From Bacillus cereus (GTDB lineage: Bacteria; Bacillota; Bacilli; Bacillales; Bacillaceae_G): DNA of 64,000 bases. Shown here piece after piece: positions 1,908-58,751 of this stretch (position 1 is the first letter of the stretch; each line of letters begins with the position of its first letter). A program made the position numbers and the translations under genes. The notes below the pieces were generated by a model that ran no database searches, was not told where the DNA came from, and saw only the letters and a list, made by a program, of their open reading frames with translations. The DNA lies in the NCBI RefSeq assembly GCF_002584535.1, contig NZ_NUOT01000044.1, forward strand, positions 184,330 through 248,329, read 5' to 3'.

Positions 1908-1921
1908 TTACATTTTTGTAA
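1908..1921 (-). promoter_or_regulatory. Candidate BceR-type operator upstream of pspC-like gene
   Basis: TTACATTTTTGTAA matches TNACA-N4-TGTAA, the main binding motif described for BceR-like response regulators. Read towards the pspC-like gene, a second TGTAA half-site follows 21 nt further on. A GATAAA or TATAAA -10-like box lies about 57-66 bp downstream (near 1840-1850). The motif match is seen directly; regulation is inferred. Confidence 0.45.
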
Positions 1922-9073: not shown

Positions 9074-9147
9074 GCGGGTGTAGTTTAGTGGTAAAACAAG
9101 AGCCTTCCAAGCTCTGGTCGAGAGTTCGATTCTCTTCACCCGCTCCA
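9074..9147 (+). tRNA. tRNA-Gly (anticodon TCC)
   Basis: Acceptor stem GCGGGTG / CACCCGC, D-arm GTTTAGTGGTAAAAC, anticodon arm AGAGC-CTTCCAA-GCTCT and a T-loop with TTCGATT fold into a complete cloverleaf. The discriminator T and an encoded CCA (9145-9147) are present. Confidence 0.95.
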
Positions 9148-9148
9148 T

Positions 9149-9222
<74 letters not shown>

Positions 9223-9261
9223 CTAAAAAACCTTTGCGGTGACGTCAAAATCCGCAATATA

Positions 9262-9331
9262 TAAGCCTTCTAATTCGTAAGTTGAATCGTACAATGTGCG
9301 GTCGCTAACGAGTTAGGAGGCTTATTTTTTT
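9262..9331 (+). promoter_or_regulatory. Hairpin and T-run sequestering the integrase RBS
   Basis: TAAGCCTTCTAATTCGT (9262-9278) pairs over 17 positions, using two G-U pairs, with ACGAGTTAGGAGGCTTA (9308-9324). Seven T's follow and then the ATG. The 3' arm contains the AGGAGG ribosome-binding site. The element is both terminator-like and a translation block for the integrase, probably shielding it from read-through of the tRNA promoter. Confidence 0.6.
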
Positions 9332-10003
9332 ATGTCCAAAAGACGTGATTCTTTAAGAATTAGCGAAGACTTAACGAATGTTTTTAGTGATAGATTGAAA
9401 AGTGATCCGCGGAAAAGAAAGACCGCAGAGGGTCGTTATACATTTAATTTAACAATCGACAAAGCACTCGAAATAGTTGTACGTCAAATAAAGGCAACAG
9501 GCTTACGTGAGCGTACGATAAATGACTACTATTTACACGTTAATCACTTTACGAAGATAACAGATACGCAATACTTAGAAGAATTAAACGTTAATCATAT
9601 TTACGAGTGGTTATCGTCTATGAACGTTAGTAATCAAACGAAATTAACTCGTTTGAAGTGTCTAAAGGCATTTCTAGGACGTTGCCACGATAACGGGTGG
9701 ATTGATATTAACTTTTGGCGCAATGTGAAGATAAAGGTGGATACGCCTGTTAAAGAAGGTGCAACAGACCGTGAAATTAATATCTTGTTATCGGTACTCG
9801 ATTTAACACGATTCTTAGATTTACGAGATGCTACCGCTATCTTACTTATGTATCAGACAGGAATACGTGTCGGCACATTGGCGCAATTAGAACATAAACA
9901 CGTTGATTTAGAAACGAAAGTATTAAGTGCTGACGGCGGTATGACTGCTTATGAAGCTCGAAGAGGATGTGACGAAGATATGGCGATTTTTGGCGTGGCT
10001 TAA
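9332..10003 (+). pseudogene. Truncated tyrosine recombinase (phage-type integrase)
   Basis: The 223 residues visible contain a SAM-like core-binding domain (about 50-140, with RTINDYYLHVNHF and LKCLKAFLGRC) and the start of the catalytic domain with the first active-site Arg in MYQTGIRVGTLAQL (about 177). The remaining HxxR and Tyr motifs are absent. After DGGM (about residue 206) the sequence becomes unlike integrases and stops, which points to a deletion junction near 9945. Intact relatives are about 350-400 residues. AGGAGG sits 11 nt before the ATG but inside a hairpin. The gene is next to the attL side, as usual for integrases. Confidence 0.8.
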
Positions 10004-13332: not shown

Positions 13333-14073
13333 TTATTTAGATGTTTTAATCCTAATTTGACTGAATTCTATTGGTATATAGTATTTATTATAAACCACAG
13401 GGTATTTATCGCTGATATATACACTTTCTAAAATTAAATCAAATTCCTCCCCGTGGAAAATTTGATATTTTAATGATGGGGTATTGGCGGAATTAGAACG
13501 TTTAATTTCAATGGTAGAGGAATTAGCAAGTTCATATACTTTCTCCTCCAACATTTCCAATACTTGCTTCTCGTTATGCAAGTCAAGGTCTAATTTAGAA
13601 ACGGCTTCTATTGGCATCATGGTAAAAGCAAACGCTACTATCTTATCGTGATTTTTATACCATCGTTCCAATGCAACCACCGCGGTCATCTCTTGATTTA
13701 ATACTTGCATTGCATAGTCCGTTACTAGGTCAATTCGGAAATTAAGTTCGATAGCATCTATTTTTTCTGCATAGCATTTATATAAGGGATTCCCCAACTT
13801 CTCCAAGCCATCGCTACTTTCATTATGATGAAATTTTGTAATGAAATTTCCTTTTCCATGGATATTTTTAACCAATCCATCTTCCTGTAAAAGTGCTAAC
13901 GCGTGTCTTAATGTCATTCTGCTTACACCAAAGATTTTAGCCAATTCAGGTTCTGTTGGAAGTTGACTGTCTAAAGGAAATGTTCCATCCATAATTAATT
14001 TATATAATTGGTCATACACAGTGACGAATAGTGGTTTTTTTTGTTTATTGAGTTCGTGAAGTTTATTGTCCAT
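13333..14073 (-). CDS. GntR/HutC-family transcriptional regulator
   Basis: A 246-residue protein. The N-terminal winged helix (residues 15-80) has the GntR signature: YDQLYKLIMDGTF, LPTEPELAKIFGVSRMTLRHAL, GLVKNIHGKGNFI. The C-terminal part (about 95-240) fits the UTRA ligand-binding fold, with ALERWYKNHDKIVAFAFTMMPIEAV and a final YYIPIEFSQIRI strand. Such proteins are usually repressors released by a small effector. The nearest likely target is the MFS exporter downstream; the TATAGT-14 nt-ACTATA dyad in its own promoter (near 14090-14120) could be an autoregulatory site. The strong terminator separates the two transcripts. Confidence 0.85.
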   Translation of the reverse strand: MDNKLHELNKQKKPLFVTVYDQLYKLIMDGTFPLDSQLPTEPELAKIFGVSRMTLRHALALLQEDGLVKNIHGKGNFITKFHHNESSDGLEKLGNPLYKCYAEKIDAIELNFRIDLVTDYAMQVLNQEMTAVVALERWYKNHDKIVAFAFTMMPIEAVSKLDLDLHNEKQVLEMLEEKVYELANSSTIEIKRSNSANTPSLKYQIFHGEEFDLILESVYISDKYPVVYNKYYIPIEFSQIRIKTSK

Positions 14074-14205
14074 GTTTTTATACCTCTATAGTTTTTCCAG
14101 TTTATGACTATAAAGTCCGTTTCGTCTCGTTTATGGTAGATTATTTTCATTTTCTATATTCAACGACCTTTTAGGACGGCTTCTTCGCTTTTATTTGTTT
14201 TCCAA

Positions 14206-14820
14206 TTAGTTGTTAATAAATTTTTCAAACACAAACCCATAATCTTTCACGTTATATTGTTTTTTCGTGTCAACAAGCCAGTTGAAGGCAATTTGATTCA
14301 TTTCTTTAAATTGCTCTGCTAAATTAAGTTGGGCGTTTGTAATACGGCTAAATGTATTCGAAGCCATGTCTAAGCTTTTTTGAGCGTATTGTAATGTAAT
14401 ATCATTTTCATAGGAAATTTCCTCAATTTTGTGAAGTGCTTTATATAAGTCTTTAAGCTCTTCGATGTGCTTTTTATGAACATCAATTGAGTAATATTCA
14501 TCTCCCATATGAAATTTAATTTCTACATCTAAATCAATGGTACCAGCAGTTTCTAACGTTACATTTCTAATTTGATATTTGCTATAGCTAAAGCGTCGTA
14601 GTGTGCGTTTTTTACTCGTTGCACTCGTGCCATCTAAGTGAATTAACCCTTTGTTTGTAAAACAATACTCATCTGATTTTGATTTAATGAGAAAATAAAT
14701 CTTTTCACCATCTTCATGCATAACATAATCGTCGGCATCGACTTTATCGTAATCTTTCGGTGTAATCACAGAACCTACATCGCTTAATCCGAGAACATCA
14801 GCAGCTACTTTTTTGAACAT
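14206..14820 (-). CDS. YvbH-like PH-domain protein
   Basis: A 204-residue soluble protein. Residues about 10-125 look like a bacterial pleckstrin-homology domain (strands DYVMHEDGEKIYFLIKS, DEYCFTNKGLIHLDG, then YSKYQIRNVTLETAGTIDLDVEIKF). Residues about 130-200 form a helical extension like the YvbH oligomerisation region. The start at 14820 was chosen because AAGGGGATG lies 6 nt upstream. Function is unknown; related bacterial PH proteins have been linked to envelope stress. It is divergent from the 33-residue peptide gene, and a BceR-type palindrome lies between them. Confidence 0.75.
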   Translation of the reverse strand: MFKKVAADVLGLSDVGSVITPKDYDKVDADDYVMHEDGEKIYFLIKSKSDEYCFTNKGLIHLDGTSATSKKRTLRRFSYSKYQIRNVTLETAGTIDLDVEIKFHMGDEYYSIDVHKKHIEELKDLYKALHKIEEISYENDITLQYAQKSLDMASNTFSRITNAQLNLAEQFKEMNQIAFNWLVDTKKQYNVKDYGFVFEKFINN

Positions 14821-14912
14821 AGGTATCATCCCCTTCAGTTTTTGAATTCTGAATTGCATGAAATTATTTTAACATGATTGAAAGAGGAGCGTTTAAGTTT
14901 TATTTTGTAATC

Positions 14913-14926
14913 TTACAATTCTGTAA
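14913..14926 (+). promoter_or_regulatory. Candidate BceR-type operator upstream of small peptide gene
   Basis: TTACAATTCTGTAA is a perfect TNACA-N4-TGTAA match. A further TGTAAGG follows at 14933, and a TATAAT -10 box lies at 14970-14975 without a good -35, which suits an activator-dependent promoter. The geometry resembles the site in front of the Bce-type transporter at 54020-54033. Confidence 0.5.
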
Positions 14927-15010
14927 GGTAAGTGTAAGGAAGTTCGATGGTAACAATTGGTCAGTTCTTTATAATAGAGGTAACAAAGATGAAACGAGGA
15001 GGAAGAAAAC

Positions 15011-15112
15011 ATGAAAGGATTAATTGTAACAGCTTTAACGGTAGCTTTTGGGTTTGTTGCATATGAGAAGTTAACAGATGTAATTGATGTTGTAAAACAT
15101 TTAATGGCATAG
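15011..15112 (+). CDS. 33-residue membrane peptide
   Basis: The short peptide has a hydrophobic helix (LIVTALTVAFGFVAYE) followed by an amphipathic tail (KLTDVIDVVKHLMA). GAGGAGG lies 8 nt before the ATG, a near-perfect ribosome-binding site, which is the main reason to accept it as a gene. The TATAAT box at 14970 gives a short leader. A BceR-type palindrome upstream suggests induction by cell-wall-active compounds. No family was recognised. Possible roles are a stress-response regulator peptide or a small subunit of a membrane complex, but this is speculation. Confidence 0.65.
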   Translation: MKGLIVTALTVAFGFVAYEKLTDVIDVVKHLMA

Positions 15113-15145
15113 AGAGAATGGTTATGAGAGGGAAAGGGTAGATGA

Positions 15146-15394
15146 ATGGAATGGTTATTCGGAATTATAGGTATCTGTAGTGTTATACTATTGTTATTTG
15201 TTCCTAGCGGAATACTGAGTTCTACTACAAGTTTATTTTTTATGTGTGTACTTATCTGCATTATGCTTATTATTATGTTTCTTATGAAACAAAGTAAGCC
15301 GATCTTCTTTTTTAGTATGATTGTTGTTACAATTATTGTTCTCCAAATGATTACTCTTTTCTTATATCCTACAATTATAAAAGCTTTCCATTAA
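15146..15394 (+). CDS. Hypothetical 82-residue membrane protein
   Basis: Three hydrophobic segments (about residues 2-20, 27-46 and 52-75) separated by a short basic loop (MKQSKP) make this an integral membrane protein. AAAGGG lies 7-9 nt before the ATG. It follows the 33-residue peptide gene by 33 nt and ends just before a terminator, so the two probably form one transcript. No family was recognised. The opposite strand has an open frame of 122 codons, but it lacks a ribosome-binding site. Confidence 0.6.
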   Translation: MEWLFGIIGICSVILLLFVPSGILSSTTSLFFMCVLICIMLIIMFLMKQSKPIFFFSMIVVTIIVLQMITLFLYPTIIKAFH

Positions 15395-15399
15395 TGCGA

Positions 15400-15432
15400 A
15401 AATCCTCTGCGTCATTTGCTGAGGTTTTTTTT
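15400..15432 (+). terminator. Terminator after the small membrane genes
   Basis: AATCCTC...GAGGTTT stem with a small internal loop, followed by eight T's. Confidence 0.65.
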
Positions 15433-15589
15433 ATATAATAAAGATTTTCTAGTGTGAATTTTTTATTTTAATCATAAAAGTTAAATATTTTTATATTTCA
15501 AACAAATGTGTTTGGAAAGTTGTTTTCTTAACAGTCATTTGTTATATTTACTTTGAAGAGATTTAAAATCTAAAAAAAGAGGCGGACGT

Positions 15590-16588
15590 ATGGATAAAAA
15601 AGAAAATACGGTCGTATTGTTTCCACAGTTGTCAGAGCGTTATATTGACCAAGGGTTTATGGCGCTGCGGGAGCGGAAGTTCGAGGATGCATTGCGCTGT
15701 TTTGAAATATTACGTCAGTATAATGGAGAAACAGAACAAACAGAATTAGCTTCGGTTATTTGTTTATTAGAATTAAAGCGAATGGAAGATTCAAAAGAGC
15801 GATGTGAGAAGTTGCTTGAAACAGGAACAGTTTTGTTTGGGGATATTCTTGAAACATACGTGACAATTTTAGTTCAAACAAATGATTATGTAGGTGTAAT
15901 TGAAACTGTTGAAGAAGTTTTGCAGAAGAAAGAATTGACCGTAGAGCAAAGAGAGAAATTAGCACAGCTTGCCCAGTTTGCGGAAAGTATGCTAAACGGC
16001 GATGAAACAACACTGATAGAATCCGATTTTGATCTGGAAGAATTTTCGGAGAATCTATTTGTGGAAAGTTTTGGGCAGCAATTGCAGGTAATTAATGCTC
16101 TTTCAATTAAGAACCTCGAAAAAGCTTTGCCAGCTTTACAGAAATTTCTTATTGATAGCACGCGACATCCGTATTTAAAAACTTCTATTATATACAAAAT
16201 GGTAGAAAAGCGTATAGAAGAAGAAATAGAAGTAGAGAAATTTGGCGAAAAAATAATGGTTATCCCAGCTCATTTGGGTCATAATGATGAGTGTTCGAAG
16301 CGGGTTATACATATATTATCTAATCGATTAGAAAATGATCATCCAGATATATTTGAGGCAATTATTACATATTGGAGAGAGATGCAAACTAGTATTTTCC
16401 CGTTTCCATTACTAATGGATAAGCACGAAGTGTGGGCAGCTGTTCTAGAGCGGATCGGGAGAAAACGTTTCGGATTGATCATCGATGAAGAGGCCCTTAT
16501 GGCAGCGTATAATATTACTGTTGAAGAGTTTCATATTGCTTATCAATGGTTTTTACGCGTGGAGAGGGAAGGGCATTTACCCGTATAA
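15590..16588 (+). CDS. ysoA: TPR-repeat protein YsoA
   Basis: A 332-residue soluble protein. The N-terminal half shows tetratricopeptide-like helix pairs (YIDQGFMALRERKFEDALRCFEIL; LASVICLLELKRMEDSKERCEKLL; YVTILVQTNDYVGVIETVEEVL). The C-terminal half is acidic and contains a helical domain typical of YsoA homologues. Its position directly upstream of tig is conserved in Bacillus, which supports the name. TPR proteins are adaptors; a specific role is not established. AGAGGCGG precedes the ATG. Confidence 0.85.
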   Translation: MDKKENTVVLFPQLSERYIDQGFMALRERKFEDALRCFEILRQYNGETEQTELASVICLLELKRMEDSKERCEKLLETGTVLFGDILETYVTILVQTNDYVGVIETVEEVLQKKELTVEQREKLAQLAQFAESMLNGDETTLIESDFDLEEFSENLFVESFGQQLQVINALSIKNLEKALPALQKFLIDSTRHPYLKTSIIYKMVEKRIEEEIEVEKFGEKIMVIPAHLGHNDECSKRVIHILSNRLENDHPDIFEAIITYWREMQTSIFPFPLLMDKHEVWAAVLERIGRKRFGLIIDEEALMAAYNITVEEFHIAYQWFLRVEREGHLPV

Positions 16589-40900: not shown

Positions 40901-41578
40901 ATGAACGGTATTCGTGATGTTTTGAAAGAAGAACAACCACGGGAGCGTTTATTAGCAGAAGGAGCAAGTAATTTATCGAATCGGGAACTTCTTGCAGTAT
41001 TACTTAGAACGGGTTCTAAAGAAGAATCTGTTCTAACATTAGCGGATCAAATTTTATATCATTTTGACGGATTAAGAATGTTGAAAGATGCTACAATGGA
41101 AGAGATGACAAGCATTCATGGAGTAGGAGTAGCAAAGGCGTCTCAGTTAATCGCTGCTTTTGAATTAGGAAGAAGAATGGTACGTTTAGAGTACCAAAAC
41201 AGATATAGTATTCGGAGTCCAGAAGATTGTGCTAGTTATATGATGGAAGAGATGCGTTTTTTACAACAAGAGCACTTTGTTTGTTTATACTTAAATACGA
41301 AAAATCAAATCGTGCACCGTCAGACTGTGTTTATTGGAAGTCTAAATGCCTCAATTGTGCACCCCCGTGAGGTGTTCAAAGAAGCTTTTCGCCGTGCAGC
41401 AGCCTCTATTATATGTCTGCATAACCATCCTTCAGGAGACCCTACGCCGAGTCGTGAAGATATTGAAGTAACAAAGCGATTGGTGGAATGTGGGAGAATT
41501 ATTGGAATTGAAGTCCTTGATCACATTATTATAGGTGACCATAAATTCGTGAGTTTAAAAGAAAAAGGTCATATTTAA
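40901..41578 (+). CDS. radC: RadC-family JAB/MPN-domain protein
   Basis: A 225-residue protein. A helix-hairpin-helix-like region (about 45-80: MTSIHGVGVAKASQLIAAFELG) precedes the MPN+ domain with the metal motif HNHPSGDPTPSRED (about 170-183). The family was named for radC102, but a direct role in DNA repair is unproven. AAAGGAG lies upstream of the ATG. It sits between maf and mreB as in many Firmicutes. Confidence 0.95.
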   Translation: MNGIRDVLKEEQPRERLLAEGASNLSNRELLAVLLRTGSKEESVLTLADQILYHFDGLRMLKDATMEEMTSIHGVGVAKASQLIAAFELGRRMVRLEYQNRYSIRSPEDCASYMMEEMRFLQQEHFVCLYLNTKNQIVHRQTVFIGSLNASIVHPREVFKEAFRRAAASIICLHNHPSGDPTPSREDIEVTKRLVECGRIIGIEVLDHIIIGDHKFVSLKEKGHI

Positions 41579-52253: not shown

Positions 52254-52961
52254 ATGTATAAAATATTAATTGTAGAAGATGACGAAAAAATTGCAGAAAT
52301 ATTAGAGGAACATTTAGGAAGATATGGATATCAAACATTCAGGGTGACTGATTTACGTCACATAAAAGATGAGTTTGTAAAAGTAAATCCTCATCTAGTG
52401 TTACTTGATATTAATTTGCCATACTTTGATGGCTTCTATTGGTGCCGTCAAATTCGTACAATATCGAATGCACCCATTATTTTCGTCTCTGCAAGAACAG
52501 GGGAAATGGATCAAGTGATGGCGATTGAGAATGGCGGGGATGACTATATTACAAAGCCGTTTCATTTAGACATTGTAATGGCAAAGGTGAAGAGTGCATT
52601 GCGCCGAGGATATGGGGAGTATGCTTCTACGGCAGAAAGCGATTGTTTAGGCGTGAATGGATTGTTATTATTTCCATCACAGCACACAGTAGAGTGGAAA
52701 GGTCAACAAACTGAACTTACAAAAAATGAATTTTACTTATTAGAATGTTTAATGAAACAGGCTAATCAATACGTCACGCGTGAAGAGTTATTAGAGGCGC
52801 TATGGGATGAAGTAGCTTTTGTTGATGATAATACATTAACTGTGAACGTAAAACGCGTAAGGAAAAAATTAGAGGAGCTTGGTATTAAAAATGCAATTGT
52901 AACAAAACGTGGGTATGGTTATGCGCTTCTTACAGAGTGGGGAGAAGAGCATGAAGCTTAA
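52254..52961 (+). CDS. BceR-like OmpR-family response regulator
   Basis: A 235-residue regulator. The receiver has the phosphorylation site Asp52 (LVLLDINLPYFDG) and Lys of TKPF (about 103). The winged-helix DNA-binding domain (about 140-228) ends with VKRVRKKLEELGIKN and GYGYAL. Genetic context (histidine kinase without a sensor domain, ABC transporter) makes it a member of the Bce/Psd peptide-antibiotic module family. It likely binds the TNACA-N4-TGTAA site at 54020-54033. Confidence 0.9.
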   Translation: MYKILIVEDDEKIAEILEEHLGRYGYQTFRVTDLRHIKDEFVKVNPHLVLLDINLPYFDGFYWCRQIRTISNAPIIFVSARTGEMDQVMAIENGGDDYITKPFHLDIVMAKVKSALRRGYGEYASTAESDCLGVNGLLLFPSQHTVEWKGQQTELTKNEFYLLECLMKQANQYVTREELLEALWDEVAFVDDNTLTVNVKRVRKKLEELGIKNAIVTKRGYGYALLTEWGEEHEA

Positions 52962-54033
52962 AAGTTACTTCATAGATCGATTTTCTTTAATCCTTTCTTA
53001 TATTGTAAGTCTTTGCTTATTCGGGCTTGTGTTACAGTTACAAAGTCTTTTAGAAAAGAGATCACTTGACTTGGGAACATGGCTATATGGACTTTTATTA
53101 GGAACAGTCGTGTTTATCGTATACCTCATTTACGATTATCGAAAGAGAAGTGTATTTTTAAAAAGGATAGAACAATATATTGCTGGAGGACATACGTTAC
53201 ATGATTCTTTACTCATTGACGATTCTTATACGTCAGAGCAAGAAATGATCGTAGAAGCGTTCACATTGCTGAGACAGCAATATATGGATGAAATTCATAA
53301 GCAGCATGCAAAAGAGCAGCAGCAAATGATCTTTATGAATCAATGGATTCACCAAATGAAAACACCGGTTTCAGTTATTGAATTATTGCTGCAGAAATAT
53401 GGTAAAGAACATCGGGAAGCTAGAGAAACGGTTGAAAGTATTCGCGAAGAAAATAACCGCATTTTAAATGGCTTAGATTTAGCATTACATATGGCAAGGT
53501 TAGAGCAGTTTGCGAAAGATTACAAAGTAGAAGTAGTGAACGTAATAGATGTTGTTCGAGATATTATTAACCAAAATCGAAAATCATTTATTCAATCTTC
53601 TGTATATCCGAAACTAATGTTTGAAGAAGATACGTGTATGGTTGCATCTGATAGAAAATGGCTTAGCATTGCCATAGGTCAAATTGTTATGAATGCAATT
53701 AAGTACACAAAAATCTCACAAGTAGAGAAAAAGGAAATTCAGTTTCAAATTGAAGAGAGGGATCACAAAGTTTTATTACATATTCGTGATAATGGAATTG
53801 GTATCCCAAAGCAAGATGTAAAGCGTATATTCGATCCGTTTTTTACGGGGATAAATGGTCGTAAAACGAGAGAAGCAACAGGGATGGGATTATATATTAC
53901 AAAGGAGATTTGTGATAATCTTCATCACGGAATTTACGTGCAATCGACCGAAGGGGAAAGCACAACATTCACATTTCAATTTGCAAAAGACGAAGAATAT
54001 CATGTGTTGATGAGAAAAATGACAAAATTGTAA
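52951..54033 (+). CDS. BceS-like intramembrane-sensing histidine kinase
   Basis: A 360-residue kinase with two close N-terminal transmembrane helices (about 11-31 and 41-61) and hardly any extracellular loop, the hallmark of BceS-type kinases that sense through their ABC transporter. The phospho-His is His134 in QWIHQMKTPVSV. The HATPase domain shows NAIKYTK, DNGIGIP and GMGLYI. The start at 52951 overlaps the regulator by 11 nt and has GGGGAGAAG upstream. Confidence 0.9.
   Translation: MKLKSYFIDRFSLILSYIVSLCLFGLVLQLQSLLEKRSLDLGTWLYGLLLGTVVFIVYLIYDYRKRSVFLKRIEQYIAGGHTLHDSLLIDDSYTSEQEMIVEAFTLLRQQYMDEIHKQHAKEQQQMIFMNQWIHQMKTPVSVIELLLQKYGKEHREARETVESIREENNRILNGLDLALHMARLEQFAKDYKVEVVNVIDVVRDIINQNRKSFIQSSVYPKLMFEEDTCMVASDRKWLSIAIGQIVMNAIKYTKISQVEKKEIQFQIEERDHKVLLHIRDNGIGIPKQDVKRIFDPFFTGINGRKTREATGMGLYITKEICDNLHHGIYVQSTEGESTTFTFQFAKDEEYHVLMRKMTKL
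54020..54033 (+). promoter_or_regulatory. BceR-type operator of the ABC transporter genes
   Basis: TGACAAAATTGTAA is a perfect TNACA-N4-TGTAA palindrome overlapping the kinase stop codon. A second TGTAA half-site lies 20 nt on (54049-54053). A TATAGT -10 box is at 54087-54092 with no good -35, as expected for an activator-dependent promoter. Confidence 0.6.
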
Positions 54034-54126
54034 GATAACAAATGTTTTTGTAAGGGAAATCACTCGTTTCTTTTTCTCAATTTTTTTATAGTAAATGTAA
54101 GAAGAAAACACATAGGGGGATTAGAA

Positions 54127-54903
54127 ATGAGTGTTCTTGAAGTAAAAGGGTTAACGAAGGTGTATCAATCAAAAGGTTCAGTGGCAACGACTGCTTTACA
54201 TGATATAAATTTTAAAATTGAAGAAGGCGAATTTGTAGGGATTATGGGTCCCTCAGGAAGTGGGAAAACAACGCTTTTAAATTTATTAGCGACAATTGAT
54301 AAACAAACTTCAGGTCATGTATATGTAAACGGTGAAGAAATTAGTCAAATGCGAGCTGCAAAATTAGCAGAATTTCGTCGTACACATTTAGGATTCATCT
54401 TCCAAGATTTCAACTTACTTGATACGTTATCTATTAAAGAAAATATCATTTTACCACTTGTAATGGCAAACCGTCCTGTAAAAGAAATTGACGCAAAGGT
54501 GCTAGAGATTGCGAAATTTTTAAATATCGAAGGAGTTTTAAATAAAAAGGTATATGAAGTATCGGGTGGACAACAGCAACGTGCGGCAGCTGCACGAGCA
54601 ATCATTCACGATCCAACATTAATTTTAGCGGATGAGCCAACTGGGAACTTAGATTCTAAGTCTGCAAAATCTTTAATGGGTGCTCTACAAGATTTACATG
54701 AGCAAAAGAAAGTGACAATTGCAATGGTAACACACGATCCGGTAGCGGCTAGCTATTGCGAACGTATTTTATTTATACGTGATGGAGAAATTTTCTCAGA
54801 AATACATAAAGGAAAAACGAAGCAAACCTTTTTCCAAGAAATTTTAGACGTACTTGCGATGCTAGGAGGGGAATATCATGAACTTTCGCCAGCTCGCGCT
54901 TAA
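54127..54903 (+). CDS. BceA-like ABC transporter ATPase
   Basis: A 258-residue ATPase of the MacB/BceA type: Walker A GPSGSGKTT (41-49), Q-loop FIFQDFNLLDTL, signature SGGQQQR (about 142) and Walker B LILADEPTGNLDS. It would power antimicrobial-peptide detoxification (freeing lipid-linked cell-wall targets) and signalling to the kinase. AGGGGGA precedes the ATG. It overlaps the next gene by 26 nt. Confidence 0.93.
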   Translation: MSVLEVKGLTKVYQSKGSVATTALHDINFKIEEGEFVGIMGPSGSGKTTLLNLLATIDKQTSGHVYVNGEEISQMRAAKLAEFRRTHLGFIFQDFNLLDTLSIKENIILPLVMANRPVKEIDAKVLEIAKFLNIEGVLNKKVYEVSGGQQQRAAAARAIIHDPTLILADEPTGNLDSKSAKSLMGALQDLHEQKKVTIAMVTHDPVAASYCERILFIRDGEIFSEIHKGKTKQTFFQEILDVLAMLGGEYHELSPARA

Positions 54904-56791
54904 TAATGTAAAAGGAAATTGGCGTAATTATAAAGCCTTTCTTATTAGTAGTTGTTTATCAATTGTAGTATTTTTTATGTATGCTTCTTTCATTTATCAT
55001 CCAGATGTCGTAAACGGTAATATTAGCATGAGGACGATGATTACAAAAGGATTAGAATCTATGAATTATATCGTGGTTATCTTCTCAGCACTCTTTATTT
55101 TATATGCTAATTCAACGTTTTTACGTGCAAGAAAAAAAGAGTTCGGTTTATTAACATTAATAGGTGGAACGAAGGCTCAACTTGGCCGAATGATTATACT
55201 AGAGCAAATGATGTTAGGTTGTATTGCAATTGTAGTAGGTATTGGTCTTGGAATGCTTTGTTCAAAACTTTTCTTCCAAGCATTAGGTGTATTATTAAAA
55301 ATTGATAAAACACTTCCGCTTGTATGGAATGGAAAAGCAGTTCTTATTACAGCTGGCGTATATTTTATTCTTTTTTTAGTCTTAGCATTGTTTAGTGTTT
55401 GGACGGTAGGACGCTTACAAATTATTGATTTATTAAGAGAAGCGAGAAAGCAAAAAGTAGAACCGTTTGCATTTACATGGTTATGTGTAGTTGGGGTATT
55501 ATGTATTATTGTCGCATATGTCCTTTGTTTCCAAGTGACGCTTATGAATTTTCTTATGTACTTCTTGCCGATTGTAGGATTAACAGTTGGAGGAACATAT
55601 TTACTATTTACACAAGGAAGTACAGTTGTATTAAAAGCATTACAAAGACGAAAAAAATCATTCTATACATATCCAAATATGTTTGTGCTTAGCAATCTTA
55701 TTTATAAAATGAAAGATAATGCTCGTTTTCTTTTCGTTATTTCTATTATTACGGCTGTTGTTTCTTCAGCGGTTGGGACGCTTTACGTATTCTTTCAAGA
55801 TATGAGTTATAAAACAGTAGCAAGTACTCCTCATGCTATTTCATATATAGAAAAGGGAGTAAATACGCATAACGTCATAAGTGAAGAAAAAACGCAAGAG
55901 TTAATAAAAAAACATGGATTTGAAGAAGCGCGAAAAGTAACATATGTAAAACTTCCTGCAAAACAAAAAATAGTAATGTTTAATGGTGAGCATGAGATGC
56001 CTTTAGGTATTATCACAGAAAAAGAATATAATGCAGAAGCGCGTAAGCAAAAGAAAGAGGAAGTTCATAATGCACCAGGAAGTGCAACGATGGTTTTACT
56101 TGATATGATGAATGATTTTGTGAAGATAGATCGTACAAAGCCATTTGAGTTTACACTGAACGGACAAAAGCAGTCTATCAAGCTAAATGATCCAATTTCG
56201 CAGTCTGTTTTTAATGATGAAGGGTATCTTATCGTCAATGATCAAGACTTTGTGAAATATGCAGAGAGTGTATCAGATGAAGAAAAGACGAAATATTACG
56301 GATATTATATTGAAGATTGGAAAGAAACAGAAGATCTTGTACTAGACTTAAAAAAAGAAATTGCACAAGAACAACAAGAGAATTTCCACAATTCCATTCT
56401 TACGTATAAAGCGATAAAAGAGCAAGGTGCAATTACAATGTTCATTGGTTTCTTCGTAGCGGTACTATTCTTCTTCTTTGCTTGCAGTATGACGTACTTT
56501 AAATGGTTTAACGATAAGGAACAAGATCGTATCCAATTTAAATCATTAAAGAGAATTGGTATGACAGATAAAGAAATTCGTAAAATCGCACTTCGCCAAA
56601 TGGGAGCTATTTTCTTTATCCCGATTCTTATAGGGGCTATTCATAGCGGGTTTGCTCTTCATACATTAGGGAAGATGCTTTATTTAGATTTATGGAAATC
56701 AGGTGCAATTGTCATTGGAGCGTATATTGTAGCTTCAGCAATTTATTTTGCAATTGCACAAAGAGGATATTTAAAACACGTAAAAAGCTAG
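54878..56791 (+). CDS. BceB-like ABC permease, first copy
   Basis: A 637-residue FtsX-superfamily permease with about ten transmembrane helices (1 near the N-terminus, groups at 50-300 and 530-630) and a large extracellular domain (about 310-520) between helices 7 and 8, which is the peptide-sensing part in BceB proteins. The opening MNFRQLALNNVKGNWRNYKAF is shared with the second permease. The start lies within the ATPase gene, preceded by AGGAGGGG. The stop codon lies in a 15-bp perfect hairpin. Confidence 0.92.
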   Translation: MNFRQLALNNVKGNWRNYKAFLISSCLSIVVFFMYASFIYHPDVVNGNISMRTMITKGLESMNYIVVIFSALFILYANSTFLRARKKEFGLLTLIGGTKAQLGRMIILEQMMLGCIAIVVGIGLGMLCSKLFFQALGVLLKIDKTLPLVWNGKAVLITAGVYFILFLVLALFSVWTVGRLQIIDLLREARKQKVEPFAFTWLCVVGVLCIIVAYVLCFQVTLMNFLMYFLPIVGLTVGGTYLLFTQGSTVVLKALQRRKKSFYTYPNMFVLSNLIYKMKDNARFLFVISIITAVVSSAVGTLYVFFQDMSYKTVASTPHAISYIEKGVNTHNVISEEKTQELIKKHGFEEARKVTYVKLPAKQKIVMFNGEHEMPLGIITEKEYNAEARKQKKEEVHNAPGSATMVLLDMMNDFVKIDRTKPFEFTLNGQKQSIKLNDPISQSVFNDEGYLIVNDQDFVKYAESVSDEEKTKYYGYYIEDWKETEDLVLDLKKEIAQEQQENFHNSILTYKAIKEQGAITMFIGFFVAVLFFFFACSMTYFKWFNDKEQDRIQFKSLKRIGMTDKEIRKIALRQMGAIFFIPILIGAIHSGFALHTLGKMLYLDLWKSGAIVIGAYIVASAIYFAIAQRGYLKHVKS

Positions 56792-56840: not shown

Positions 56841-58751
56841 ATGAACATCAGGCAACTAGCGATACAAAATGTAAGGGGAAATTGGCGAAATTATAAAGTG
56901 TTTTTCTTGAGCAGTTGTTTTGCGATATTTGCTTCTTATGCATATATGTCCGTAATTGTCCATCCTTACATGCAAGAGACGATGTGGTATCAAAATGTGC
57001 GATTGGGGCTCATTGTATGCAACGTTATTATTGTCTCTTTTTTTATTTTATTTATTTTGTATTCTACTTCTATATTTATAGAAGCGCGCAAAAAAGAATT
57101 AGGATTATATATGTTAATGGGAGCGACGAAGTCTAACGTAATAGGGATGATAATGACCGAACAAATGTTGATTGGGATTTTTGCTAATATTTTCGGTATT
57201 GGACTTGGCATGATATTTTTAAAACTCTTTTTTATGGTATTTAGTATGCTCCTTCGTCTTCCGAAAGAGTTAACTCTTATTTTTGATGCGAAAGCGATTT
57301 TTATAACGCTTAGTATATATACTATCGTCTTTTTCGTTCTATCATTTATAAGTGCTTTACGTATATGGAATATAAAGGTTATTCGACTATTAAAAGAGTT
57401 TCGAGCAGATAAAAGAGAAGCGAAAAGTTCAAAATGGCTGTGTTTATTTGGATTTTCCTGTTTAGTGATTGGCTATAGTTTAGCTTTCCAAACGACGATG
57501 TTAACGATGGGATTATACTTTATTCCAGTTGTCATATTAACCTCTGTTGGAACGTACTTTTCATTTACACACGGTGTTACACAAATATTAGAAATGATAA
57601 AGCGAAATAAAAAAATAATGTATACGTATCCGTATTTGTTTATAGTAAATCAGCTATCACATCGAATGAAAGAAAATGGTCGTTTCTTCTTCCTTTTATC
57701 TATGGCAACGACGGTTGTTGTTACAGTCACGGGTACGGTGTTCTTATATTTTTCGGGCATGGAAGATATGTGGCGAGACGGAGGAGCACAATCGTTTTCA
57801 TATGTAGAAAAAGGTATCCATTCTCATGAAGTTTTTGAAAAAGATGCGGTAGAAAATCTATTACATAAGCATGGGTATGATGAATTTCAATATACAAGCT
57901 TTGTAGGATTGCAAACAACGTTTCAATCTCGAAACGAAAGTATAGAAGCCACCCTTATAGGAGCGAGTGAATACAATAAAGAGGCAAAAAAGCAAGGGCA
58001 GAAAGCATATAATCCAAAAAAGGGAACGGTTATGCTAGTTTATTATAATGAATATAATGGACCCGCTTTATATAATAAAAAAGAAATTCAACTACATGTA
58101 TTTGGACAATCGTATCAATATGCGTTTAACGGTCAAAAGGAAGGAGCGCAATTCAATTATCATAATTCACAAATAAATGGTACATTTTTTGTTATGAATG
58201 ATGAAGACTTTAATCATATAGAAGCGACGATTCCTGATGTAGAAAAAATCGTCTACCGAGGTTACACCTTAAATAATATTGAAGATACAAAGAAATTCAA
58301 CGAAGATTTACGTAAATATATAAAGCAAGATAAGAGTAGCGTATTTCGAAACAATATGGAACTATATGTGAATATGAAAGAGGTAGGTGAATTTACGTTA
58401 TTTATTGGCTCATTTATTAGTATATTATTCTTTCTTACTTCATGTAGCATTGTATATTTTAAATGGTTTCATAATATTTCATCGGATCGTAAGCAATATG
58501 AAGCCCTCTCTAAACTCGGAATGACAAAGCAAGAAGTGTGGGAAATTTCTCGTTGGCAATTAAGTATGTTATTCTTTGCGCCTATTGTAGTAGGGAGTAT
58601 ACATAGCGCAGTTGCATTATATACGTTTCATAATACAGTCTTTATGGAAGGATCATTTAGGAAAGTATGCTTGTTCATTATGTTTTATATTGCCGCATGC
58701 ATCATTTATTTCTTCTTTGCTCAAAGAGAATATAGAAAACATATAGACTAG
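56841..58751 (+). CDS. BceB-like ABC permease, second copy
   Basis: A 636-residue permease, paralogous to the preceding one along its length (both start with a RQLA-N-V-GNWRNYK pattern and end in a FAQR-Y-KH motif). The extracellular domain (about 305-515) is much less similar. GGGGGAAAG precedes the ATG. Only one ATPase gene is present, so either the two permeases form a heterodimer or each uses the same ATPase. Most Bce modules have a single permease. Confidence 0.9.
   Translation: MNIRQLAIQNVRGNWRNYKVFFLSSCFAIFASYAYMSVIVHPYMQETMWYQNVRLGLIVCNVIIVSFFILFILYSTSIFIEARKKELGLYMLMGATKSNVIGMIMTEQMLIGIFANIFGIGLGMIFLKLFFMVFSMLLRLPKELTLIFDAKAIFITLSIYTIVFFVLSFISALRIWNIKVIRLLKEFRADKREAKSSKWLCLFGFSCLVIGYSLAFQTTMLTMGLYFIPVVILTSVGTYFSFTHGVTQILEMIKRNKKIMYTYPYLFIVNQLSHRMKENGRFFFLLSMATTVVVTVTGTVFLYFSGMEDMWRDGGAQSFSYVEKGIHSHEVFEKDAVENLLHKHGYDEFQYTSFVGLQTTFQSRNESIEATLIGASEYNKEAKKQGQKAYNPKKGTVMLVYYNEYNGPALYNKKEIQLHVFGQSYQYAFNGQKEGAQFNYHNSQINGTFFVMNDEDFNHIEATIPDVEKIVYRGYTLNNIEDTKKFNEDLRKYIKQDKSSVFRNNMELYVNMKEVGEFTLFIGSFISILFFLTSCSIVYFKWFHNISSDRKQYEALSKLGMTKQEVWEISRWQLSMLFFAPIVVGSIHSAVALYTFHNTVFMEGSFRKVCLFIMFYIAACIIYFFFAQREYRKHID

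What the first reader, a model, noticed from the sequence alone, without database searches (positions are those of the whole stretch)
14913..15112. A 33-residue membrane peptide under a BceR-type operator
TTACAATTCTGTAA (TNACA-N4-TGTAA) lies 44 bp before a clean TATAAT that drives a peptide gene with a near-perfect ribosome-binding site. The same palindrome stands in front of the Bce-type transporter in this window. Together they suggest that an undescribed hydrophobic mini-protein belongs to the peptide-antibiotic stress response. By a rough base-composition estimate, about one such motif is expected by chance in 64 kb, so the promoter placement matters more than the match itself.
Basis: partly seen in the sequence, partly recalled or inferred. 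Interest (0 to 1): 0.72.

Follow-up and report, generated by a model that had tools for sequence, protein, structure and literature searches.

The report
Bce-type promoter drives tiny membrane peptide

Summary
TTACAATTCTGTAA (14913-14926) is only the first part of a composite operator: palindrome M1, a second element TGTAAGG...CGATGGT 11 bp on, and TATAAT at +57 with no -35 box. A matrix from 34 promoters of Bce-type loci in Bacillales relatives scores it at 40.6 bits; the next best place elsewhere in the window scores -2.6. The exact core (TTACAN4TGTAAGN5TGTAAG) has 32 sites in 23 of 397 Bacillales genomes searched, its reversed control none. Fifteen precede Bce transporters; 17 lie elsewhere, 8 of them before recognisable envelope-type families and 4 before small (40-46 residue) one-span peptides.

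The window's own Bce operon uses another operator class (M1-M2 spacing 20, -10 at +68), and its regulator lies outside the regulator clade that goes with the peptide's class. The likely controller is another BceR-like regulator, encoded elsewhere. The peptide is borderline for a membrane span and has no relative in the data searched. No close relative of this genome turned up, so conservation is untested; induction and function are inferred.

The parts
14913..14926 (+). M1, primary palindromic half of the composite operator, TTACAATTCTGTAA
   Evidence: composite matrix score 40.6 bits on the + strand, -2.0 for the same palindrome read on the - strand
14933..14951 (+). M2, second element TGTAAGGAAGTTCGATGGT; TGTAA starts 11 bp after the TGTAA of M1 and sets the direction to the right
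   Evidence: alignment with promoters of relatives; TGTAAG-N5-TGTAAG seen in none of 200 shuffles
14970..14975 (+). -10 box TATAAT, 57 bp from the start of M1, no -35 hexamer
   Evidence: in the 37 class B promoters the commonest best -10 positions are 58-59 bp from M1, ties counted
14996..15003 (+). Shine-Dalgarno sequence GAGGAGGA
   Evidence: read
15011..15112 (+). 33-aa peptide gene MKGLIVTALTVAFGFVAYEKLTDVIDVVKHLMA
   Evidence: one predicted helix 2-32, pLDDT 91.8, pTM 0.44, from a single sequence
15146..15394 (+). 82-aa hydrophobic ORF downstream, same strand, possibly co-transcribed
   Evidence: hydropathy; no family over its cut-off
15404..15432 (+). stem-loop followed by a T run, possible terminator
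   Evidence: fold -11.6 kcal/mol, z -2.0, 8 of 200 shuffles as stable; not listed by the stricter scan
14206..14859 (-). divergent neighbour, bacterial PH domain plus YvbH_ext; M2 points away from it
   Evidence: Pfam
52254..52961 (+). BceR-like response regulator of the window's own operon, outside the class B clade
54020..54093 (+). promoter of the window's own Bce operon, class A: M1 54020-54033, TGTAAGGG from 54049, TATAGT 54088-54093

Best explanation
The 14913-15432 stretch is a small satellite transcription unit of a Bce-type (peptide-antibiotic detoxification) regulon. A phosphorylated BceR-like response regulator binds M1 (TTACAN4TGTAA), then M2 (TGTAAGG...CGATGGT) 11 bp on, and activates a promoter that has a TATAAT but no -35 box. 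The transcript carries the 33-aa peptide and possibly the 82-aa hydrophobic ORF. The regulator is most likely not the one encoded at 52254 but a paralogue of the class B clade encoded elsewhere in the genome. The peptide, a single helix with a hydrophobic N-terminal half and an amphipathic C-terminal half, would insert in or lie on the membrane when lipid II-cycle antibiotics are present and act as an accessory to the envelope-stress response, in the way that VraH assists VraDE. Shown: the operator architecture and its class. Inferred: binding, regulator identity, induction, translation, membrane location and function.
For: Matrix of 34 non-redundant class B promoters: 40.6 bits at 14913, inside the leave-one-out range of its members (18.2-59.4); best place elsewhere in the window -2.6, at 41062; rank 1 of 127,894 on columns not used for selection. 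Core pattern: 32 sites in 23 of 397 genomes, 0 for the reversed pattern; 15 of 32 precede a BceA-type ATPase. The other 17: DUF1093 2, PAP2 2, VanZ 1, CAAX protease 2, DCC1-like 2, transglycosylase 1, peptides of 40-46 aa with one hydrophobic stretch 4, and 3 others (one not scanned, one without a family, one with no ORF recognised). By one mechanical rule 4 of 14 satellites with an ORF begin with a small hydrophobic ORF against 3 of 584 intergenic -10-like control sites with an ORF. Class B promoters go with one RR clade: 35 of 36 in a 47-row clade supported 99/96 that holds none of the 10 class A rows; the window RR is outside. M2 with TGTAA rather than TGAAA goes with a 9-row subclade of it: 8 of 8 classed rows, against 0 of 27 class B rows in the 34-row clade beside it.
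Against: No RNA or protein evidence. The peptide has no convincing relative in 397 Bacillales genomes drawn from the order, in plasmids or phages, or in viral contigs by a degenerate pattern of its first codons, and in G027, which has yvbH and ysoA divergent, I saw no such peptide between them. Its hydropathy is borderline. The matrix was trained on sites chosen by the palindrome and the spacing, so the full score is inflated. The classes are my own and not perfectly tied to the tree: L218 (B) and L231 (A) are sisters, and in G027 a TGTAAGG-type transporter promoter (L254) lies about 3 kb from a kinase whose RR is in the TGAAAG clade (L240). No class B RR could be shown in this genome. Related genomes share sites, so the 32 are not independent: L258/L271, L272/L279 and L263/L265 among the satellites and several transporter pairs are orthologues. 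One of the 17 satellites (L268) scores low (13.3) and has no ORF. With mismatches allowed the reversed control is no longer empty: 5 against 17 at two mismatches, 2 against 23 at one. By my mechanical rule the window's own first ORF is an out-of-frame 25-codon ORF; its only RBS-like bases lie between the -10 box and the expected start of transcription.
Confidence: 0.7

Rival explanations
1. The RR encoded at 52254 itself controls the peptide, despite the different spacing.
For: Half-sites are alike, it is the only Bce RR I saw in the window, and cross-regulation by paralogous Bce-like RRs is reported in L. paracasei (passages of PMC10858260).
Against: Its own promoter and that of the operon in G027 with a 65%-identical kinase are class A (20 bp; -10 at 68 in the window), the peptide's is class B (11; 57); RR outside the class B clade.
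Confidence: 0.2
2. The 82-aa ORF is the effector and the 33-codon ORF is a translated leader or coupling peptide.
For: Same strand, 33-base gap, possible terminator only after the 82-aa ORF.
Against: The 33-codon ORF has the stronger Shine-Dalgarno sequence; behind the small peptides of L274 and L242 the next same-strand ORFs of 30 codons or more that one search shows are short (39 and 46 codons) and start 411 and 248 bases from the site. The 82-aa ORF has no convincing relative either.
Confidence: 0.2
3. The peptide is a type I toxin or the transcript is a regulatory RNA, and the operator is incidental.
For: Short hydrophobic ORF with strong RBS; a weak promoter-like site on the minus strand at 15288-15260.
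Against: Seven promoter-like sites in 13800-16200 against 10.5 expected in shuffles, no clear antisense unit, and the composite operator is complete.
Confidence: 0.07
4. The TGTAAG-N5-TGTAAG direct repeat is a site of another OmpR-family regulator such as WalR or PhoP.
For: The direct repeat is striking: one in the window, none in 200 shuffles.
Against: The WalR consensus (recalled) is not met at 14922; its only match in the window is at 15181, and none of the three PhoP-like matches lies there. The repeat is an ordinary part of the M1-M2 layout of Bce promoters. HitR and EdsR could not be tested: the passages I saw give no site letters.
Confidence: 0.04
5. Chance palindrome.
For: TNACAN4TGTAA alone is expected about once per 64 kb, and the 1908 copy is such a decoy.
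Against: Composite score, 0 reversed-pattern matches in 397 genomes, class-typical -10 spacing within 1-2 bp.
Confidence: 0.01

Closest known systems
BceR-like target promoters (PbceA type; consensus TNACA-N4-TGTAA)
   Same: Palindrome M1, second element, -10 without -35, on the strand that reads into the gene
   Different: It stands before a 33-aa peptide gene, not a BceAB-type transporter, and belongs to the spacing class that the window's own Bce operon does not use
VraH of the S. aureus VraDEH system (small membrane protein, third component of a Bce-type transporter)
   Same: A very small hydrophobic protein tied to a Bce-type response (passages of PMC5786555, PMC7438565)
   Different: VraH lies in the transporter operon and carries a YYKRREEKGK motif; this peptide is a separate transcription unit and lacks the motif
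YxeA/DUF1093 proteins accompanying YxdLM-type transporters (the YxeA-DUF1093 link is recalled)
   Same: Small companions of Bce modules; in relatives DUF1093 genes also sit behind the class B operator (L282, L284)
   Different: 119-120 aa here and a recognised family; no sequence relation to the peptide was seen
GraR/ApsR-type expanded regulons (dlt, mprF besides the transporter)
   Same: A Bce-like RR controls unlinked envelope genes (passages of PMC3128592, PMC10858260)
   Different: No small-peptide target appears in the passages I read; their target tables were not read

Membership tests
Bce-type (BceR-like) target promoter | TNACA-N4-TGTAA primary site | tested here: met
Bce-type (BceR-like) target promoter | second element at fixed spacing (TGWAAG...CGATRG) as in relatives | tested here: met
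   spacing 11, class B
Bce-type (BceR-like) target promoter | -10 box at class-typical distance, no -35 | tested here: met
   57 bp against mostly 58-59 in class B, so 1-2 bp short; no -35 read
Bce-type (BceR-like) target promoter | bound by a BceR-like RR, induced by peptide antibiotics | not testable with these tools
   needs binding and expression data
Target of the RR at 52254 | same operator class as that RR's own promoter | tested here: not met
   class A against class B
VraH | encoded in the Bce transporter operon | tested here: not met
   no transporter gene between 14860 and 15590
VraH | C-terminal YYKRREEKGK motif | tested here: not met
   peptide sequence against the motif given in PMC5786555
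VraH | interaction with the transporter ATPase | not testable with these tools
   needs biochemistry
SE2200 family small protein (NF040843) | score at or above 30 bits | tested here: not met
   12 bits; the family gives weak matches in 25 of 43 genomes and passes its cut-off in 0 of 43
WalR box | TGTWAH-N5-TGTWAH (consensus recalled) | tested here: not met
   only match in the window is at 15181
Single-span membrane peptide | 19-residue hydropathy of at least 1.6 (threshold recalled) | tested here: inconclusive
   best 19-residue mean 1.51, best 15-residue mean 2.23; helix 2-32
Conserved peptide gene | kept in close relatives together with the operator | not testable with these tools
   no close relative found in the collections searched

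The most novel reading that the evidence does not exclude
Class B BceR-like regulators across Bacillaceae control satellite units that repeatedly recruit unrelated 33-46-residue single-helix proteins. These mini-proteins would be a convergent class of membrane accessories that tune the BceAB-BceS flux-sensing complex or shield the lipid II cycle, a VraH-like role invented several times.
Probability: 0.3. Interest if true: 0.75.

Novelty: new variant of a known kind. Interest (0 to 1): 0.55.

Why it matters
Some Bce modules are described as regulating only their own transporter, others also dlt and mprF (passages of PMC7438565). A two-class operator code that tells which paralogous regulator serves which promoter, and a set of satellite genes that includes orphan mini-proteins, would give a sequence-based way to read these regulons in genomes with several Bce systems, and would name small proteins that annotation usually misses as candidates in the peptide-antibiotic response. 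It also corrects the inference that the nearest Bce operon must be the partner.

Tried and rejected
Looking for the peptide elsewhere: plasmids, phages, viral contigs by degenerate DNA, and 9, 19 and 397 genomes, partly the same ones. Of the 4 hits, three are pieces of 455-468-aa frames and one is a 52-codon frame with a stop inside (L106, not looked at further); my note wrongly says all four are in long frames. L081 and L082 have no like context. SE2200 family: noise. Searches with ysoA in genome contigs and viral contigs and with the 82-aa ORF in viral contigs found no relative; the 82-aa ORF in 19 genomes gave only weak hits (best E 0.012 inside a 263-aa frame). The 30 yvbH loci of relatives (L107-L136) hold no exact TNACAN4TGTAA. 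I first suspected WalR, PhoP, HitR or EdsR because of the direct repeat; WalR and PhoP fail, HitR and EdsR could not be tested. A palindrome-only count in 4 genomes is uninformative: 7-16 sites per genome against 12-16 for the reversed control. One search stopped on a script error and was redone.

Dropped or chosen before counts: of the hits I used the 30 loci returned and 40 more taken roughly down the list. L215 was left out of the tree (partial RR). Only class B promoters fed the matrix (37, reduced to 34 by similarity); 10 class A, 3 'B10', 13 'other' and 8 'none' did not, and some 'none' are failures of my rule (L157 has a class B promoter by eye). In one search I examined 36 of the 40 sites (L245, L246, L259 and L262 left out as duplicates or seen before) and 2; several of them score near zero or below and are probably chance (such as L243, L244, L249, L251, L266, L269). 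Satellites L268, L284 and L287 had no ORF by my rule and are not in the 14. The hydropathy limit of the control was first 2.4 (1 of 584) and was lowered to 2.2 because the window peptide reaches 2.23 (3 of 584). L263 and L265 are homologous and L274 was seen (as L194) before the test was framed; with that pair collapsed the test gives 3 of 13, p = 1.6e-4 instead of 6.4e-6.

Full report
What was claimed. All elements are where stated, with 43 bases between. The palindrome alone is weak: 3 distinct TNACAN4TGTAA sites in 64 kb against 0.87 expected, and one of the three, at 1908, lies between two convergent gene ends and scores -7.0 at best with the matrix described below.

The extended operator. 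To learn what a Bce-type promoter looks like I searched 299 Bacillales genomes with the window's kinase (172 of 299 had a match at E <= 1e-30), used the 30 loci returned and 40 more hits taken roughly down the list: 70 loci plus the window's. A TNACAN4TGTNA motif stands near the kinase end or between it and the ATPase gene in 63 of the 71; the other 8 had none by my rule. Most of the promoters listed share a longer design: M1 = C-TTACA (or TGACA)-N4-TGTAAG, then M2 = TG(A/T)AAG...CGAT(A/G)G, then a -10 box. Two spacing classes stand out. In class B (37 of 71) the TGWAA of M2 begins 11 bp after the TGTAA of M1 and the best -10 is mostly 58-59 bp from M1. In class A (10 of 71, the window's own included) the spacing is 20-21 bp and the -10 is mostly 67-69 bp from M1 (ties counted). 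Three had spacing 10, 13 were unclassed and 8 had no motif.

The peptide promoter is class B. It reads TTACAATTCTGTAAGGTAAGTGTAAGGAAGTTCGATGGTAAC; that of the transporter in G311 reads TTACAAAACTGTAAGGTGACTGTAAGGATAACAGATGGTAC (L158). A matrix from 34 non-redundant class B promoters, none from the window, gives 14913 a score of 40.6 bits; members left out one at a time score 18.2 to 59.4. The same palindrome read on the other strand scores -2.0, which sets the direction towards the peptide, and the best place elsewhere in the window scores -2.6. Because members were chosen by the palindrome and the spacing, I also scored only the columns not used for that choice: 14913 ranks 1 of 127,894 positions. 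A related core with TGNAAGG has 15 sites in 15 of 299 genomes, 10 of them before a BceA-type ATPase, and none reversed. The exact core TTACAN4TGTAAGN5TGTAAG has 32 sites in 23 of 397 Bacillales genomes, and the pattern read backwards has none in them. With mismatches the control is not empty: 2 reversed against 23 at one mismatch in 16 genomes, 5 against 17 at two mismatches in 19 genomes.

The window's own Bce operon is class A. Its M1-M2 spacing is 20 and its -10 lies 68 bp from M1; L141 in G027, whose kinase is 65% and whose RR is 78% identical, has the same M1-M2 spacing. In a tree of 70 response regulators, 35 of 36 class B rows sit in a 47-row clade (99/96) that holds no class A row; the window's RR and L141 lie outside it. 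Within that clade, M2 with TGTAA marks a 9-row subclade (8 of 8 classed rows), and TGAAA the 34-row clade beside it (27 of 27 class B rows). The peptide's M2 is TGTAAGG. I therefore predict a regulator of that subclade, encoded outside the window. This is an inference: the genome of the window is not held, so the paralogue could not be looked for. Exceptions: L218 (B, with TGTAA) and L231 (A) sit together in a distant group, and in G027 a TGTAAGG-type transporter promoter (L254) is about 3 kb from a kinase whose RR is in the TGAAA clade (L240).

What such operators drive. Of the 32 core sites, 15 stand before a BceA-type ATPase. The other 17 stand before: DUF1093 proteins (2; YxeA by recall), PAP2-superfamily phosphatases (2; likeness to BcrC is recalled), VanZ (1), CAAX-type proteases (2, of which one of the near-identical pair was scanned), DCC1-like oxidoreductases (2, one of the homologous pair scanned), a transglycosylase (1), peptides of 40, 42, 42 and 46 residues with one hydrophobic stretch (4: L274, L263, L265, L292), a protein that recalls DUF418 (1, not scanned), an unknown 252-aa protein (1, no Pfam family at E <= 0.001) and nothing recognisable (1, L268). 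Orthologous pairs in sister genomes are among both groups, so these are not 32 independent cases. With mismatches allowed, further sites stand before a 37-aa peptide (L242, G012; score 29.3) and a 23-codon ORF (L253, G027; low score 13.2). By one rule, 4 of 14 satellites that had an ORF begin with an ORF of at most 50 codons with a 15-residue hydropathy of at least 2.2, against 3 of 584 intergenic -10-like control sites with an ORF (p = 6.4e-6; 3 of 13 and p = 1.6e-4 with the homologous pair collapsed). With the first limit of 2.4 the control gave 1 of 584. The control sites are hexamers, not proven promoters, and one of the four peptides was seen before the test was framed.

The peptide. MKGLIVTALTVAFGFVAYEKLTDVIDVVKHLMA is predicted as one helix, residues 2-32, pLDDT 91.8 from a single sequence. 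Residues 3-17 are hydrophobic, 18-33 amphipathic (moment 0.44-0.48); the best 19-residue mean of 1.51 is just under the usual limit (recalled) for a span. It meets no family cut-off. An out-of-frame ATG upstream begins a 25-codon ORF, which my mechanical rule picks first, but its only Shine-Dalgarno-like bases lie between the -10 box and the expected start of transcription, whereas GAGGAGGA serves the 15011 start. An 82-aa hydrophobic ORF and a stem-loop with a T run follow. The divergent yvbH-like gene has relatives in many genomes, but the 30 yvbH loci fetched hold no exact palindrome, and in G027, where yvbH and ysoA are also divergent with about 2.5 kb between them, I saw no such peptide among the ORFs of 24 codons or more. 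The peptide is thus restricted, as far as the searched data go, to a group of which I found no member: ysoA found no relative in genome contigs by exact peptide patterns, and in 397 genomes drawn from the order the top-ranked DNA match was 74% identical. From memory the gene order looks like the Bacillus cereus group; no call names the organism.

Mechanism. Described for Bce modules in the passages I saw (PMC10858260, PMC7438565, PMC5786555, PMC9020739): the transporter senses the peptide antibiotic, the intramembrane kinase follows it, and the RR induces the resistance genes; TNACA-N4-TGTAA is the consensus for such RRs; accessory small proteins exist (VraH), and some modules also control dlt and mprF. 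Shown here: the peptide has such a promoter, of the class that goes with other RRs than the neighbouring one. Inferred: it is induced by lipid II-cycle antibiotics, is made, sits at the membrane and assists the response.

What is in print. In full-text searches the listed titles and abstracts show no paper on this peptide or on small-peptide satellites of Bce regulons; only the top rows were listed, passages of 10 papers were seen (a find in PMC3023708 gave none), no whole text was read, and most subscription papers are not held. Fang et al. 2017, Dintner et al. 2011 and Popella et al. 2016 were seen only in reference lists or as cited, and de Been et al. 2008 is recalled; part of the two-site architecture, and perhaps this very site, may be described there.

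Verdict.

Noticed in passing
L248, L258, L271, L272, L279, L282, L284, L288, L290, L294: In Bacillales relatives the class B Bce operator also stands before VanZ, CAAX-protease, DCC1-like, DUF1093, PAP2 and transglycosylase genes: a wider envelope regulon than the transporter alone.
   Followed up: partly
window 54878-56791 and 56841-58751: The window's Bce operon carries two FtsX-type permeases in tandem behind one ATPase.
   Followed up: no
window 9074-10003: tRNA-Gly and tRNA-Arg genes are followed by an ORF that resembles a shortened tyrosine recombinase (resemblance recalled; no Pfam family at E <= 1e-5), which suggests an old integration site.
   Followed up: partly
window 1908-1921: A perfect TTACATTTTTGTAA palindrome between two convergent gene ends scores -7 at best as a Bce promoter: a decoy that shows the 14-mer alone is not enough.
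   Followed up: yes
G027 (L191, L253-L257): This relative, whose kinase is the closest found, has six sites within two mismatches of the TGTAAGG core pattern, before a transporter, a lone permease, two lipoprotein-like genes, a transglycosylase and a 23-codon ORF.
   Followed up: partly
L211, L214, L221: Three loci have M1-M2 spacing 10 instead of 11, a possible third class.
   Followed up: no
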